A stretch of 64,000 nucleotides of DNA, taken from positions 8,680,001 through 8,744,000 of the forward strand of contig OY754464.1 of assembly GCA_963575645.1 (NCBI GenBank). The letters are read 5' to 3'. Shown here piece after piece: positions 3,428-61,069 of the stretch. The position numbers and the translations under genes were made by a program. Under the pieces are notes generated by a model. That model had not been told where the DNA came from and made no database searches. It saw nothing but the letters and a program-made list of their open reading frames with translations. Source of the DNA: Xanthostigma xanthostigma. Taxonomy: Eukaryota > Arthropoda > Insecta > Raphidioptera > Raphidiidae. Numbering within the stretch: the first letter of the stretch is position 1; each line of letters begins with the position of its first letter.

Positions 3428-3966
3428 TAATAGTCAGAGTGCCCGTCGGCAAAAATTTTACCGACAAATACTCTCCCCAAACTTTGTATATGGCTTCATT
3501 AGGCCTAGTCTGACACCTATTTCCTCTATGACTTTTTTTGATTTTGGGGCGTTTTCCCTCTAAGTTTTCAGAAACATGTAAAAAATTTATAGATACTATA
3601 TTTGTTTTTTTTAATTGGATGGCTTAAAATAATGTTCTCTGACAAATAATATTTAATTTAATTAATTTTTTTATAGTCTTTTTTTTGGACATATTCGAGG
3701 TGTCAGACTTTTTAAATGGTTCATATTTTTTGTCAGGGAACATTATTTTAGTATTTTGGTTGAAGTTTTTAACCTATCCAATTAAAAAAACAAACAGTAT
3801 CTATAAACTTTTTACATGTTTCGGAAAACTTAGAGGGAAAACGCCCCAAAATCAAAAAAAGTCATAGAGAAAATAGCTGTCAGACTAGGCCTAATGAAGA
3901 CATATACAAAGTTTGGGGAGAGTATTTGTCAGTAAAATTTTTGCCGACGGGCACTCTTACTATTAC
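3428..3966. mobile_element. Foldback MITE with about 190-bp inverted arms
   Basis: The left arm (AGAGTGCCCGTCGGC at 3436 onward) is repeated inverted at the right end (GCCGACGGGCACTCT, to 3957). The arms run about 190 bp each and are nearly identical, including TTTGGGGCGTTTTCCCTC. Flanking TAATAGT sequences are also inverted, so a TA target duplication typical of Tc1/mariner-type elements is plausible. It has no coding capacity. Confidence 0.8.
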
Positions 3967-26785: not shown

Positions 26786-28160
26786 ACAAAACCGACCATC
26801 AACTTATACACTTGAGTAAAATACGTGTGAATAGGCTGTGTGCACGAAGCCTACTAGCGCCGCTAGTGGGTAATAGAGAATTATTGAACTCACTTTTTAT
26901 CGAAATCGCGACATGTTTCTATGGTGATAAAACTTTAGTTGGCCATGATGTGTCAAAAAAAAATGTAATAAGGAAAACTTTTTATATACCATAAAATTCA
27001 GATTTGTAAACCATTTTATAAATAGCATAACATAAAAGGTACGCGAGAATTATTTATTTATCAGTTATGACGTACAATATATAAATAATTAATTTGTTTA
27101 CGCTGACAGCGAAACGTCAAATTATGGCGTCAATGGTCTTAATTTTACTTAAATCGCCATCAGCGCAACAGCCTGGAACACAGCAAGCATTTCCAGATCG
27201 CTTAATTTTGCCCACGTTGTCTTTGTAATTAAAAAACTTCGTAAAATTATAACTATTTTTACTTTTAATAAACATTGCTCACTGACATACGGAAAATTGG
27301 AGGTTGAAGTTTCCCCTAGTGCTCACCACAAACGCTCGCATCGAAAAATTTGCACATAGCCCATACAATTATAGTATCTAACTGAGCGCGATACATTTTA
27401 CTTCTTTGATGTTCTCGTCTCATTTGTTTGTCTTTTTAAACAACAGGCAGTAGAAGAATCACAGGTATTCCGACCACGTCCGTCCAACTCAAGACGCCGC
27501 GGCGTCACGGCGCTCCCGTTCTCTCCGGTTATTTATAAAAATATACACTGTATTTAGGTATCGGTGGGTCGGGGATATTCAGTCGGGAAACGGGCCCAGC
27601 GGGGCTGTTGTTTACTCTCAAATGGGGAGAACGTTTTAGATAGGGAGGCACATTATATCTACACGCACGCCGTTAGAAGAACGACTCGTCGAAAAAAATA
27701 CATTTCGACATTTTCTTACAATCGGCATTTCTAACTGGGATTGTTGGAAAGAAAATACTTTTAGATTTACAGGATCCTTCGGACGATTTTTTTATTTGGA
27801 AAAAAACTATTATTTAATTTAAATTTGTTGTCAGAATTGGCGCTGGAAAAACCGCTCTATTTTATTTACCAATTGGATCGACCAATGATATTTCAAATTC
27901 GCGAAAGATATGCAGTAATTGTAATTCAAGATGTAGTGAAGATTTTACCACGTTTTTCGTGTTTGACGGGCGAAATTTTGTAATTGATTTTAAACAAACT
28001 TCCTGATGAGATAGAGACTTGAAATTTTTAACATACCTCAGAATTACATGACAATACGTGACAAAAATAAAGAAAAAAATAATAAAAGTTTTAAAGTATT
28101 TAATCGATACATATAATTCATTCTGACTTGTTTACCGTTGTAAGGCACCTAGCAAGCGTC

Positions 28161-29127: not shown

Positions 29128-29882
29128 AAAAATTATTTATTTTATTATTTTTAGTCAGTTAAGAAAATAATCTGCCATTGAAGATTTCGGTCGACAAAAT
29201 AAAGGCCCGCCACCACTGGAGAATATAGGCGAACAGCTTGCAATGAGACAGGCAGTGCGGGAAAGGTTTAACAAATGGTGCACACGAGGTGTGCATAGCC
29301 TACTACATAGTGATGCCACCTAAAAGTCTTTGTGTATAGAGAATTTCCTCCACAGTTCTCTATACAATATGTGACTGTCAAACAGTCACTTTCACTTACA
29401 GTTGACCTATACAAGCTATACTTGGGTAGTTCCGGACATGGATAGCTCCAGGAACCACGTCCTCTGTCAGAGATGTTTTCTATGGGCTATGTGCAAGGAG
29501 GCGGAGTTACAAATTTTTCGATGCGAGCGTTTGTGGTGAGCACTAGAGGAAACTTCAACCTCAAATTTTCCGTATGTCAGTGAGCAATGTTTATTAAAAG
29601 TGAAAACAGTTATAATTTAATGAAGTTTTTTAATTACAAAGAAAACATGGGCAAAACTAAGTGATCTGGAAATGCTTGATGTGTTCCGGGATGCTGCGCT
29701 AATGGCGAATTAAGTAAAATAAAGACCATTGGCGCCATAATTTGACGTTCCGCTGTCAGTGTAAACAAATTAATTATTTATATATTTTACGTCGATTATT
29801 GATAAATAAATAATTCTCACATACCTTTTATGTTATGCTATTTATATAATGATTTACAACCTGAATTTTATGGTACCTATAT

Positions 29883-50017: not shown

Positions 50018-50161
50018 ATTTTCTGGTATTTATCATGATACATTTTTTGGTTATTTTTCAGGAGTCAAATGGCATTTCTTAAGGATCAATTGAGAATCAA
50101 GAAATGCCATTTGACTCCTGAAAAATAACCAGAAAATGTATCATGATAAATACCAGAAAAT
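50018..50161. repeat. Near-perfect hairpin, 63-bp arms
   Basis: The arm 50018-50080 (ATTTTCTGGTATTTATCATG and on to GGCATTTCTT) is the inverse of 50099-50161 with one mismatch. The loop is 18 nt. It lies at the edge of the larger foldback. Confidence 0.85.
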
Positions 50162-50297
50162 CGCCTTCAGTCCTCTTTCACCGAAAATTATGATCATGGT
50201 GTCATTCGATTCGGAATGACATCTAGAAACTTTTTGAAAAAATTGAAGAAGGGTACGAAAAATTGCAAAAGTTATAAACATTTTAGTAAAAGAAAAA

Positions 50298-50508
50298 TTG
50301 GTTGTCTGTAAAGTCGGTTTACGGACGATAGTTTTACGTGATAACGTATTCCGTAATACATAACCTAAATTTTAGTAGCTGTCAAACTTGGGCCGAAGCA
50401 TACTGCGCTCTCGCTTGCACGCACAAGGTCAGGCGAAACGTTAGGAACGTTACACTTTTTTCGTGCGTGCAACTGGTGTTTCATCAATTTATAAGACGTT
50501 ATCACGTC
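50298..50508 (-). mobile_element. Element E, copy 2 (internally deleted, inverted)
   Basis: Starts TTGGTTGTCTGTAAAGTCGG and ends GACGTTATCACGTC. It keeps both ends of element E but only 211 bp, a MITE-like derivative. Flanked by A runs. Confidence 0.75.
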
Positions 50509-50528
50509 AAAAAGAGAGGTTTGTTTTT

Positions 50529-51499
50529 GACGTGATAACGTCTTATAAATTGATGAATCACCAATCTTATAAATTGATAAAACACCGGCTGCATGCACGA
50601 AAAAGTGTAACGTTCCTAACGCGTAACGTTCCGCCTGACCCTGTGCGTGCTTTTTGCTAATTTCTCGCTCAATTTAAATCAGATCGGTTTGAAACCAGTC
50701 TTAAACGAAAGAGGAGAACATTTTACATAGATTTCGTATAACAGAATTTGCCTAAACAGTTTTTGTATACAAATTTATATAGAAAAATAGCTGTATAAAT
50801 GCAATGTTGTCTAATGCATGGCGCGACGCGGTCGGTCGTCTTTGTTTGCCGTACATGGAAATTAGAAGATAACGTATGTCTTGTCTTAACATGAAAACGG
50901 CTGCATTTCTAATGTTTAATTCAATTTTTTGACATTAGTATTTTGTGAAATGCAACGCCTTCTAAGTTAAGTATTGGAATAACTAATTATTATTAGAGCA
51001 TAATACTTTGACAGTTGCAAACGTCACTTTTGACATTTCTTATCATTCCGACACCAAGGATAAGCGGATTGAAACCAAATTTTGGGAGGATGTTTGATAT
51101 GCAAATATGAAGTGGCCTATTGTTTTTGGGGAACATCGGCGCATGCGTAAAAGAATATATCTCTTATAATGATGTTTTATATAATAATAATATAGTTTTT
51201 AAAACGGTTTTTACTCTATCTATTTTTACTAGAAATTTTTGTAAATTTTTTGGGGAAAATCGGCGCATGCGCAAAAGAGATACATGCCATAGTTGTTTTT
51301 TATTGTTTTTTATATAATAATAGTATACTTTTTATAGTGTTTTATTATTCTACTTAATAAAATTTACCTAAATTTGAAGCGAAAGATGCAATATCATAGA
51401 TTCGAATTATTATAATTATTATATAAATTTAGGTTATGTATTACGGAATACGTTATCACGTAAAACTATCGTCCGTAAACCGACTTTACAGACAACCAA
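50529..51499 (+). mobile_element. Element E, copy 3 (full length)
   Basis: Same ends and nearly the same sequence as E1 (12644-13618), including the nested family A segment (51060-51345). It lies 20 bp from E2, in opposite orientation, with T runs at both sides. Confidence 0.8.
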
Positions 51500-52004
51500 T
51501 TTTTTGCGAATATTTTAAAAACTATTGCAGATATCTGAAATCACAAAAAAGATTCTGAAAGAGCAGGAAATTTCCTATAAAAAAGTCCCATCTCCCGGAA
51601 CTCTACCACCAATATTACTAATTTTAATTTAAAGATGAAAATAAGGCTAAACAAATTTTTTTCTATTGTCAATATTTTTATGTCTTTTACATTGTCGTAT
51701 AAAAAATAGAAAAAAAATATTCACCTCTAAATTAAAATTAGAAATATTGGTGGTAGAGTTCCGATTGATGGGACTTTTTTGTAGGGAATTTTCTGCTCTT
51801 TCCGAATCTTTTTTGTGATTTCAGATATCTGCAATAGTTTTTGAAATATTCGCAAAAAAACAAACCTCTCTTTTTTCTTGTACTTAAATGTTTATAACTT
51901 TTGCAACTTTTTCGTACCCTACTACAATTTTTTTTCGAAAAGTTTCTAGATATCATTCCGAATCGAATGACACCAAGATTATAATTTTCAGTGAAGGAGG
52001 ACTG

Positions 52005-52826
52005 GGATTCACCAAAAAGGGACATAAGCTAACAATGAAAACCACTTTAGACGGACGGACGGACACCGTTTTGCACGGAACACTAAAAACACAAAAAAAA
52101 AAGAATCCTTCTCTTTATTTGTTTTCATGTTTTTTATACATGTATTTACAAATAATAAAATTAAGTATCTAATGAAAAGTTTCACTTCTACCGAGTGTAA
52201 GGAATTTTTTCATATTTATCGAGAGATGAAAATAAGAGATCTCGTCGAAACTACGAAATATTCTTCAAGAAAAAACCAATAATAAAACCGTATTTCAAGC
52301 GGCACAGTGAAGTCTTTAAATGAAAATAAATAAAAAAAGTGTTTCGAAGATACGCAGAGATAACGAGCAATAATTAATTTAATGAACATAAAAGTAAAAA
52401 ATCGGATATACGAAACACGTATAATAAAGCTTAGAGTTGACGAGGAAAGCGGCTTCTTATGAGCGCCTGGAGAGAGGGACGGAGAGAGAGAGAGAGACAA
52501 TGAGAGAGAAAGCTTTTGTGTATCTTTCGACCGTGGTAGCCTCCAGTGGCCGTTTTACATACTAATTGTACTTTAACTGTATATATTATGATAATGCTAT
52601 GCGTGGGGGCTTGCGGTGGACCCAGATAGCGACCCTTTGCTTCTACACCCACAGCCAGGATACTTTTATTATTCACTATATTGACTTTAAAACAGTGTTT
52701 CCATAATCGACTAGTCACGGTGCGGTCAAGTCTGGGAACAGTTAAACGGGAATGAAAGGATCGATAAAGAGGAATGCTGACTTAATAAATTAAAACTGAA
52801 TTGCCGTAGAAATTTGTTATCTCTAA
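52005..52826. other. No gene seen
   Basis: Contains a GA-rich microsatellite (about 52470-52512). Nothing coding recognised. Confidence 0.5.
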
Positions 52827-52856
52827 TCTATACTAATATATAAAGCTGAATAGTTC
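52827..52856 (+). repeat. Helitron 5'-end fragment (H7)
   Basis: Only the first 30 bp of family 1 (TCTATACTAATATATAAAGC) remain after an A. Confidence 0.6.
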
Positions 52857-52970
52857 ATTTAAAATATATTTTACATATAATATGGTATGATCGTCCGGTG
52901 TCTGTATATATAGTAACGGATTACAAAATCCACATACTGTGAGAGTTGTTTTTTTAATGAATTATACAGA

Positions 52971-53685
52971 TAGTCCGGAGGTGGTGTCAAAATTTATCAG
53001 TGATTTATCTCCGACTCAAATGTAATTGATTGAAGAGTTTAACCATTACTCTGTTCGAAATCGAAAGTCAGTCAGCGCTCCCGCGGTGGGTGTGGGCGTG
53101 GGAGGCTGTGAAACTCGTCGGAAAAACTATGAAAAAAAGTGATAAATCTGCTGATGAAAATTTGTTAGATTGTAAATAATTGATGATTAAACGTGAAAAT
53201 ACTCGTCAGTCACTTTCCCGACGGGGGAAACATCGTCAGTCATGAATGATTTCCTTTAAAAGAATATCAATTGCTCAGTGTTTGAATTTAAAATCGATAT
53301 TTTCAGAACGAATAGTAGGAACTGAAATATTCTATTCCTACTATTCGTTCTGAAAATATCGATTTTAAATTCAAACACTGAGCAATTGATATTCTTTTAA
53401 AGGAAATCATTCATGACTGACGATGTTTCCCCCGTCGGGAAAGTGACTGACGAGTATTTTCACGTTTAATCATCAATTATTTACAATCTAACAAATTTTC
53501 ATCAGCAGATTTATCACTTTTTTTCATAGTTTTTCCGACGAGTTTCACAGCCTCCCACGCCCACACCCACCGCGGGAGCGCTGACTGACTTTCGATTTCG
53601 AACAGAGTAATGGTTAAACTCTTCAATCAATTACATTTGAGTCGGAGATAAATCACTGATAAATTTTGACACCACCTCCGGACTA
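52971..53685. repeat. Perfect 715-bp palindrome, two 351-bp arms
   Basis: I compared 52971-53321 with the inverse of 53335-53685 line by line and found no mismatch and no gap. The 13-nt centre is CTGAAATATTCTA. The outer ends read TAGTCCGG and CCGGACTA, so the unit may be bounded by TA. The sequence of the arms does not match any other repeat in the window. The left arm read forward has a frame interrupted by a stop (KFISDLSPTQM, then LIEEFNHYSVRNRKS) with no domain I know. Confidence 0.95.
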
Positions 53686-53819
53686 AGACGTTAGCTCAAT
53701 TAATTAAAATAAATAAAGTCGTAACTTAGTCTGTAATTGAACAGTTTTAAAGATTCCTAGAGCAAATTTTCAGTTTTCATCACTTTTTTATGTTTATATT
53801 TTTTTGTACCTTTCTTCTA

Positions 53820-53857
53820 TCTATACCAATATATAAAGCTGAAGAGTTTGTTTGTTT
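53820..53857 (+). repeat. Helitron 5'-end fragment (H8)
   Basis: TCTATACCAATATATAAAGC and a short GTTTGTTTG stretch, then unrelated DNA. Confidence 0.6.
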
Positions 53858-56981: not shown

Positions 56982-57640
56982 CATCTCAACCCACAAGTGG
57001 AGAATAGTACTAGTTTAGGTAAAAAATCACTTTTCAAAAATTTTATAATATCTTTCCGTTTTAAGGTCCCCCGAATCCAAAAAACATATTTTTGAATAAA
57101 CTCTGTGCGTCATGTTAGCCTGTTTGTCTGTGAACACGATACAAGTCGGATTGAAACCAAATTTTGGGAGGATGTTTAGTATGCAAATATGAAGAGCCCT
57201 ATTGTTTTTGGGGAAAATCGGCGCATGCGAAGAAGAGATATATGCTAAAACGGTATTTTTTATATAATAATGGTATACTTTTCATAATGGCTTTATTATT
57301 CTATTTATTTTTTCAAGAAAGTTTTGTTAAATTTTTTTTTCTAAACTTTATAGTTTTGGTAATATTTTGAAAATAAAAAAAATCATCCGCTCTTTTGTTT
57401 TAATGTTTTATGGATCTGTCAGAAATAAACTAGTTAGGAATGCTTTGATTAATTTTTCCATGACGTGGAACATACTATGTAGGTAACCATAGCAACGAAT
57501 AGTTAATATCATATTGAATACTAGCCATTACCCGCCTCACCTCACGCGATATCAGAAATTTTATTTTCTTTATTATAATCAAATGTCAACATTTTTGAAG
57601 TTGGAATGATCCCGTCGCCCAATTGGCTGGAATTTTTTCC
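56982..57640 (+). repeat. Repeat family A, full copy
   Basis: From CTCAACCCACAAGTGGAG to CCCAATTGGCTGGAATTTT. Adjacent to the inverted partial copy at 57700. Confidence 0.8.
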
Positions 57641-57699
57641 TTGAACCGAGCTGGAAAGCTGTATACTCGTACATACTGTAATTCTTTATCAATTTCAAC

Positions 57700-58015
57700 G
57701 GATTTTGAAAAGTGTACCATCATTATATAAGAAAGCAACGTTATAGCATATATCTTTTCTGCGCAAGCGCCGATTTTCTTAACAACAATAGGTTTCTTCA
57801 TATTTGCATATCAAACATCTTCCCAAAATTTGGTTTCAATCCGCTCATCCGTTTGACCTGTATCGTATTCACAGACAAACAGACGCACAGACTGTTTTCA
57901 AAAATATGTTTTTAGAATTCGGGATACCTCAAAAGGAAACAATATTGTAAAATTTTGAAAAGTGAATTTTGACCTAAATATAGCATTTCTCACTTGTGGT
58001 GTTGCAATGATAATA
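57700..58015 (-). repeat. Repeat family A, inverted 5' part
   Basis: Carries the inverse of the family A 5' half (CGCGCAAGCGCCG-like block, CCAAAATTTGGTTTCAATCC). It forms a large inverted pair with the copy at 56982. Confidence 0.75.
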
Positions 58016-60604: not shown

Positions 60605-61069
60605 TATACAGGGTGAGTTTTAAGTTGATGCTTTTTTTTACAGCGTGTAAAAATCAAATAGACGAGCAAATATTTCAAATAGTTTTTTTATCAAAACTCA
60701 AAAATAAGAGAAAAACAGCCTTTCGAAGTTTAAATAAATTTTCTTTAATTTTGAGGTCGGTCCTGGGGTTACATTATGGCACTATGGAAATAAGTTGTTA
60801 TTATCTCTCGAAAACAGAACAATACACATGCCAGTTTCAAATAAGCACCAACATACTTGATAATAACAACTTATTTCCATAGTGACATAATATAACCCCA
60901 GGACCGACCTCAAAATTAAAGAAAATTTAATAAAATTTATTTAAACTTCGAAAGGCTGTTTCTCTCTTATTTTTGAGTTTTGATAAAAAAACTATTTGAA
61001 ATATTTGCTCGTCTATTTGATTTTTACACGCTGTAAAAAAAAGCATCAACTTAAAACTCACCCTGTATA
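60605..61069. mobile_element. Foldback MITE, TACAGGGTG family
   Basis: Ends TATACAGGGTGAGTTTTAAG and its inverse with about 210-bp arms, nearly identical (CGGTCCTGGGGTTA, AATCAAATAGACGAGCAAAT). TA-type target suggested. Fragments occur at 24249 and 39838. An LTR begins 2 bp after its right end. Confidence 0.8.

What the first reader, a model, noticed from the sequence alone, without database searches (positions are those of the whole stretch)
52971..53685. Mismatch-free palindrome with 351-bp arms and a 13-nt centre
Seen directly: every base of the left arm pairs with the right arm, with identical arm lengths. All other foldbacks in the window show divergence, so this one is very recent, kept identical by gene conversion, or an assembly or library artefact. 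If transcribed it would give a 351-bp perfect double-stranded RNA, an ideal Dicer-2 substrate. The arms match nothing else in the window, and the ends are bounded by TA, which would fit a TA-targeting foldback or a captured host fragment.
Basis: partly seen in the sequence, partly recalled or inferred. Interest (0 to 1): 0.72.

Follow-up and report, generated by a model that had tools for sequence, protein, structure and literature searches.

The report
Young foldback transposon in snakefly genome
The perfect 715-base mirror-image sequence is a freshly inserted copy of a small parasitic DNA element (a foldback MITE) that exists in over a hundred copies in this snakefly's genome; it is an ordinary kind of element, though its copies record how such palindromes stay symmetrical and where they break.

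Summary
The palindrome is real: two 351-nt arms, 351 of 351 bases paired, around a 13-nt centre. It is not single-copy. The host assembly (623 Mb, 28 scaffolds; 13 chromosome lengths match the snakefly Xanthostigma xanthostigma) holds at least 114 loci of the family (hand count). Of 80 copies fetched, 59 have both ends recognised and 57 of 59 are flanked by identical 3-bp repeats, mostly TTA/TAA; here AGA. The exact empty site, with one AGA, exists in 4 of 4 fetched copies of the host repeat it entered. So it is a non-autonomous foldback MITE, and this copy is recent: each arm differs from the family consensus by one missing G. Artefact and captured host fragment are very unlikely. Two family patterns go further: sister arms share private substitutions far above chance (16 of 46; 0.6 expected), and broken second arms break mostly 26-84 nt from the centre (16 of 21 and 10 of 12 in two samples, but 2 of 7 in a biased third). 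No transposase partner was found; the superfamily (PIF/Harbinger-like by target site) is unproven.

The parts
52968..52970 (.). left copy of the 3-bp target-site duplication (AGA)
   Evidence: a single AGA in 4 of 4 empty sites fetched
52971..53685 (.). complete foldback MITE, 715 bp, TAGTCC...GGACTA
52971..53321 (+). left arm, 351 nt
   Evidence: one G fewer than the 352-nt family consensus
53322..53334 (+). 13-nt centre CTGAAATATTCTA (commonest family form CTGAAACATTCTA, seen in either orientation between the arms)
53335..53685 (-). right arm, exact reverse complement of the left, lacking the same G
53686..53688 (.). right copy of the target-site duplication (AGA)
52826..53782 (+). stretch of an abundant host repeat interrupted by the insertion; 52826-52970 plus 53689-53782 rejoin to the empty site

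Best explanation
A young, non-autonomous foldback MITE inserted by cut-and-paste transposition. SHOWN: a 715-bp palindrome, member of a family of at least 114 dispersed loci, with termini TAGTCCGGG...CCCGGACTA, a 3-bp target duplication preferring TTA/TAA, no ORF over 49 aa, and an exact empty site. INFERRED: a transposase encoded elsewhere binds the two identical arm tips, excises the unit and joins it to a staggered cut, and 3-nt gap filling makes the duplication. The arms are identical here because the source copy was itself a perfect palindrome and too little time has passed for mutation. The family stays symmetrical because changes are copied from arm to arm (supported statistically, route not shown), and copies decay largely by deletions that begin 26-84 nt to one side of the dyad.
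For: Palindrome 351 of 351. The arm query scored 40 loci of 239 first-look candidates, each with at least one arm piece at 98-100%; further loci by centre, outer end, subfamily arm and pattern: at least 114 distinct, counted by hand. Of 80 fetched copies 59 have both ends and 57 of 59 carry a perfect 3-bp repeat; among 54 with exact 5-nt tips 53 of 54 do, TTA 17, TAA 16. Joined flanks with one AGA match all 40 scored loci across the junction (at least query 4-234 of 239) at 93-95%; 4 of 4 fetched have the single AGA. Arm identical to consensus in 351 of 352 columns; least diverged of 38. ORFs 49, 40 and 49 aa.
Against: No autonomous partner found: TAGTCYGGGAGGTGG followed by a non-family base occurs 0 times (reversed control 1), the 12-nt tip followed by a non-family base 15 times against 11 for the control (these 15 places were not read), and none of 30 PF13359 loci nor L127 carries the tip. 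Two of 59 two-ended copies lack a perfect 3-bp repeat (L021 2 of 3, L038 1 of 3). 21 of 80 copies show one end only by the 19-nt test, though at least L046 keeps a shorter second end.
Confidence: 0.93

Rival explanations
1. The arms of this copy are old and kept identical by gene conversion between arms, rather than being young.
For: Across 38 two-armed copies, 16 of 46 substitutions present in exactly two arms lie in the two arms of one element, 0.61 expected. Both window arms lack the same G.
Against: The window arm has no substitution against the consensus, so conversion has nothing to have spread but the missing G, which recurs elsewhere: other loci match the outer 70 nt at 100%. An old converted copy should drift symmetrically; this one has not drifted.
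Confidence: 0.12
2. Assembly, library or chimeric-read artefact.
For: Long perfect palindromes are a known artefact form (recalled). No reads could be mapped here.
Against: A 3-bp target duplication and exact empty sites, and at least 114 related loci; the published assembly is built from HiFi reads, QV 66.1.
Confidence: 0.02
3. A captured host fragment or a hairpin-RNA (hpRNA/miRNA) gene used for silencing.
For: A transcript would be a 351-bp duplex. Rfam miRNA models match the hairpin centre, best MIR7996 at 82 bits, E 1.7e-14.
Against: 0 of 19 listed Rfam matches reach the gathering score (82 against 119 for the best); all span the centre, several on both strands, as any perfect hairpin may. 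The unit is dispersed with target duplications.
Confidence: 0.04
4. The deletion pattern and one-ended copies are ordinary post-insertion palindrome instability (slippage or cruciform cleavage) and say nothing about transposition.
For: 21 of 80 copies show one end only by the 19-nt test, and the broken side mostly lacks the expected duplication. Palindrome-induced breaks and deletions are well known (PMC7999016, passages).
Against: Classical models tend to remove the centre (recalled); here the centre plus 26-84 nt of stem is retained in 26 of 33 broken second arms of the arm and outer samples, and 23 of 59 two-ended copies are shorter than 690 bp yet keep both tips and a perfect duplication.
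Confidence: 0.5

Closest known systems
Foldback elements such as Tetris of Drosophila virilis (PMC4079207; passages seen)
   Same: Apparently non-autonomous, foldback structure, target duplications, no transposase-coding copy found, rearranged copies, possible homogenisation within elements.
   Different: Tetris has about 220-bp tandem repeats inside its arms; this family has uninterrupted 352-nt arms and only a 13-nt centre.
PIF/Harbinger MITEs (Tourist-like; defining rules recalled)
   Same: 3-bp target duplication with TTA/TAA preferred (33 of 54); Harbinger-type transposase domains are present in this genome.
   Different: The tip TAGTCCGGG was found on 0 of 30 PF13359 loci; 21 of 54 duplications are not a perfect TTA/TAA pair, this one being AGA.
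Galileo (P superfamily, Drosophila; PMC4168063, passages seen)
   Same: Long inverted repeats; structural variety there attributed to aborted gap repair, slippage, template switching and ectopic exchange.
   Different: 7-8-bp duplications and transposase-coding relatives.
Palindromes with arm-to-arm gene conversion, human Y (PMC7999016, passages seen)
   Same: Arms of one palindrome share changes.
   Different: There single large genic palindromes; here a 715-bp mobile unit in many copies.

Membership tests
Foldback MITE (non-autonomous TIR DNA transposon) | dispersed copies with defined termini | tested here: met
   at least 114 loci (hand count); both termini recognised in 59 of 80 fetched
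Foldback MITE (non-autonomous TIR DNA transposon) | fixed-length target-site duplication | tested here: met
   57 of 59 two-ended copies have a perfect 3-bp repeat
Foldback MITE (non-autonomous TIR DNA transposon) | precise empty site | tested here: met
   4 of 4 fetched paralogous sites have a single AGA
Foldback MITE (non-autonomous TIR DNA transposon) | inverted repeats make up nearly the whole element; no coding capacity | tested here: met
   702 of 715 nt are arms; ORFs of 49, 40 and 49 aa only
PIF/Harbinger superfamily | 3-bp TSD of the form TWA (recalled) | tested here: inconclusive
   length met; TTA or TAA in 33 of 54, other trinucleotides in the rest
PIF/Harbinger superfamily | termini shared with an autonomous element encoding a DDE_Tnp_4 transposase | tested here: inconclusive
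   0 of 30 PF13359 loci with 1.5-kb flanks and not in L127; about 120 of 151 matches were not examined
Mutator/foldback superfamily | 9-11-bp TSD (recalled) | tested here: not met
   3-bp duplication
Tc1/mariner TA-targeting MITE | TA duplication | tested here: not met
   duplication is 3 bp and here AGA
hairpin RNA / miRNA gene | match to a curated RNA family at its gathering score | tested here: not met
   0 of 19 listed matches reach gathering
hairpin RNA / miRNA gene | small RNAs from the locus | not testable with these tools
   no RNA data

The most novel reading that the evidence does not exclude
The palindrome is maintained by its own repair cycle. After excision the gap is refilled from the sister copy; once the new strand has copied 26-84 nt beyond the dyad it folds back on itself. 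If the folded end primes synthesis on its own first arm, a perfect palindrome is rebuilt from one arm, which would explain the shared private mutations and the perfect consensus. If instead it is end-joined, a copy with one full arm, the centre and a 26-84-nt stub results, which would explain the breakpoint peak and the short microhomologies. Foldback MITEs would then be self-templating elements that need only one intact arm.
Probability: 0.2. Interest if true: 0.65.

Novelty: new member of a known kind. Interest (0 to 1): 0.33.

Why it matters
As an object it is a new family of a known kind in an insect order for which the one search made (5 papers listed, titles and abstract openings seen) showed no MITE description. 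It is useful because it is young, numerous and almost purely palindromic, so its copies are a natural experiment on how long palindromes stay symmetrical and where they break in an animal germ line. If the breakpoint peak and the arm sharing have one cause, the question of how foldback elements keep near-identical arms becomes testable.

Tried and rejected
Autonomous partner by terminal pattern: one search gave 4 places, all 4 family members when fetched; one search gave none; one search gave 15 places against 11 for the control and these were not read. Partner by transposase: 30 PF13359 loci and one more copy, L127, lack the tip. A query with the arm of L069 led to a second subfamily, not to a coding element. 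Rfam gave only sub-threshold hairpin matches. The exact 24-nt tip has no match in prokaryote contigs, as expected for an insect element. Flanks beyond the break of 21 one-ended copies gave a few pairwise matches (for example L044 with L037, 238 bp; L059 with L078, 126 bp at 71%) and no common partner sequence; these were not pursued.

An error of mine and its correction: extracted element L069 in the wrong orientation, which gave a false signal of 24 substitutions shared by its arms (37 of 96 doubletons). One search repeats the test with orientation chosen by k-mer match; only its numbers are used. In one search the centres of L034, L037, L042 and L063 were read with an offset, so their 5'/3' labels are uncertain; the sister test does not depend on the labels. 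An earlier count gave arm types AA 23, BB 7, AB 8 by eye; the report uses the strict count.

Limits of the breakpoint result: the 26-84-nt interval was chosen after seeing the first sample (16 of 21), so its p value is no test; the outer-end sample (10 of 12) is the replication, and 2 of 2 broken arms among the four pattern loci also fall in it. The centre-query sample, which demands an intact centre, gives 2 of 7 and does not support it; two of those 7 are not large breaks (L054 lacks about 23 nt, L065 has a tandem duplication), which leaves 2 of 5. Microhomology at junctions was read from BLAST piece ends, while the random expectation was computed by exact extension, so the comparison is rough.

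Papers: searches listed 20 of 22, 15 of 68 and 8 of 68 papers; the rest of those lists was not seen.

Full report
OBSERVATION. The window holds a palindrome at 52971-53685: arms of 351 nt, 351 of 351 positions complementary, centre CTGAAATATTCTA (one search gives the same arms extended into the centre). Pairing outside falls to scattered matches. It folds at -447.8 kcal/mol as single-stranded DNA against a mean of -71.8 for 20 shuffles. The arm matches nothing else in the window.

WHERE IT IS. The window is C1:8,680,001-8,744,000 of an assembly of 623,323,696 bases in 28 contigs. The lengths of contigs C1 to C13 given agree with Table 3 of the genome note for the snakefly Xanthostigma xanthostigma, irXanXant1.1 (PMC11871431; found, passages, section 5 read); C13 is then the X chromosome. 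The tool does not name the genome, so this is an identification by lengths.

NOT ALONE. The arm as query gave 40 scored loci out of 239 first-look candidates, each with at least one arm piece at 98-100% identity. Queries with the centre, the outer 70 nt, the arm of a second subfamily and a terminal pattern add loci; I count at least 114 distinct places by hand (40 + 23 + 24 + 23 + 4). These are lower bounds, since only the best 40 candidates are scored per call.

IT IS A TRANSPOSON INSERTION. I fetched 80 copies: 40 by arm, 20 of the 23 new ones by centre, 20 of the 24 new ones by outer end. In 59 of 80 both termini were found with up to 4 differences over 19 nt; 57 of these 59 have identical 3-bp repeats outside the termini. 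Restricting to exact TAGTC / GACTA tips gives 54 copies, 53 with a perfect repeat: TTA 17, TAA 16, ATA 5, TCA 4, TAC 3, AGA 2, GTA 2, TAT 2, TGA 1, AAT 1, and one mismatch. The window copy has AGA on both sides. Its flanks rejoined with a single AGA match 40 scored loci across the junction at 93-95% (41 matches; 1665 first-look candidates). Four were fetched and aligned, and all four read TATACAGACGTT with one AGA exactly where the element sits. So the element entered a copy of an abundant host repeat at a staggered 3-bp cut.

AGE. The window arm is identical to the family consensus in 351 of 352 alignment columns; the one difference is a G missing from GGG near the tip, the same in both arms. 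By substitutions it is the least diverged of the 38 two-armed copies aligned. The centre differs from the usual CTGAAACATTCTA by one base. Perfect arms therefore need no special explanation: the source was most likely a perfect palindrome and this copy is young.

ARM HOMOGENISATION IN THE FAMILY. If arms of one element mutated independently after insertion, a substitution found in exactly two arms of the sample should rarely lie in two sister arms. In 38 two-armed elements, 16 of 46 such substitutions do, 0.61 expected; in a first pass on 17 elements, 14 of 40, indels included, at an expected 3% (the samples overlap). A two-type block at arm positions about 272-283 points the same way: of 31 elements with both arms typed, 17 are AA, 7 BB and 7 AB, where shuffling arms gives 14.1 AB on average (P 0.007 in 20,000 shuffles); 7 of 38 could not be typed by the strict rule. 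Mixed AB elements show that arms can also be exchanged or replaced singly. Against this: most substitutions are not shared (182 are in one arm only), and for each shared one inheritance from an unsampled parent is possible, though a change on both arms of that parent still requires copying between arms. This supports arm-to-arm conversion in the lineage; the molecular route is not shown. Searches contained an orientation error for L069 and are not used.

WHERE COPIES BREAK. In the arm sample, of 40 second arms 17 are intact, 21 broken with the centre retained, 1 lost the centre and 1 is absent; in the outer sample 4, 12, 3 and 1 of 20. Inner breakpoints lie 26-84 nt from the centre in 16 of 21 and 10 of 12 (about 17% expected if uniform). 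The interval was set on the first sample; the second is the replication. The centre sample, biased by its query, gives 2 of 7 (two of the 7 are not large breaks), and the four pattern loci 2 of 2. Either arm, relative to the centre's orientation, can be the broken one. Of 21 internal deletion junctions, 13 show 1-4 nt of overlap, 10 at least 2 nt and 6 at least 3 nt (random cuts: 19% and 8%, computed slightly differently), and 6 carry insertions of 1-22 nt, as end joining would give. One-ended copies mostly lack a recognisable duplication at the broken side (L015 has TAT there), so a simple one-sided repair with intact flanks does not explain them without resection. Local sequence as the cause of the peak was not tested.

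MECHANISM. Best supported: cut-and-paste movement by a transposase supplied in trans (established for MITEs in general; inferred here). The coupling of arm copying and the breakpoint peak through a fold-back of the newly made strand is my conjecture; the evidence is compatible and does not prove it, and ordinary palindrome instability after insertion is at least as likely for the deletions.

CLASSIFICATION. Length and preference of the duplication point to PIF/Harbinger, whose transposase domain PF13359 is abundant here (151 matches); three of 30 examined loci (L091-L093) show TTA/TAA duplications with inverted ends of another sequence. None of the 30, nor L127, carries the foldback's tip; about 120 matches were not examined. 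I therefore file it as a foldback MITE and leave the superfamily open.

LITERATURE. Searches for foldback/palindrome/MITE/gene conversion, MITE/palindrome/gap repair, snakefly transposons, Harbinger palindromic MITEs, foldback homogenisation and palindrome arm conversion in MITEs listed, by title and abstract opening, no description of this family or of the breakpoint pattern; the lists were capped. Passages only were seen of PMC4168063, PMC7999016 and PMC4079207. Tetris shows possible homogenisation within elements and no autonomous partner, and defective Galileo copies are attributed to aborted gap repair and template switching, so the ingredients are known.

VERDICT. Observation confirmed; the artefact and host-fragment readings fall; it is a young copy of an ordinary foldback MITE family, not found in print by the searches named, with two family-level patterns worth a proper census.

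Noticed in passing
G000 C10, about 8.6-16.4 Mb: PF13359 (Harbinger-type transposase domain) matches pile up on one stretch of chromosome 10: by eye about 90 of about 150 rows listed lie on C10, which is 6.6% of the genome; many have open frames without stops.
   Followed up: no
G000 C7:38983541, C3:45376878, C10:9025069 and others; L127: Several copies of a PF13359-bearing open frame of 723 aa with equal or nearly equal scores on different chromosomes, possibly a recently active Harbinger family; in L127 an inverted repeat surrounds it (about 1166 and 4053).
   Followed up: partly
window 52826-53853: The host repeat interrupted by the MITE starts again at 53819 (D5), about 275 bp per unit without the insertion, so it may be a tandem pair; the first look found 1665 candidates genome-wide, and C3:7453323-7453730 also shows two adjoining units.
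   Followed up: partly
window, whole: The window is rich in foldbacks: 31 inverted pairs of at least 60 nt within 3 kb, e.g. 27069-27352 / 29510-29793 (93%), 3428-3609 / 3784-3965 (94%), 60605-60752 / 60922-61069 (98%).
   Followed up: no
window 50018-52004: Dense cluster of nested inverted repeats (I2, I3, I5, I6, I11, I12, I14, I18, I21, I24), including an 80-nt pair with 100% complementarity.
   Followed up: no
window 51058-51343 and 57014-57978: A related repeat occurs in direct and inverted copies about 6 kb apart (D1-D3, I4, I7-I10).
   Followed up: no
L025 (C1:82324573) and L052 (C8:12113412): Two family members on different chromosomes share the same immediate flanks (tatgctca / tcagtata), suggesting insertion at the same position of another repeat or a duplicated segment.
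   Followed up: no
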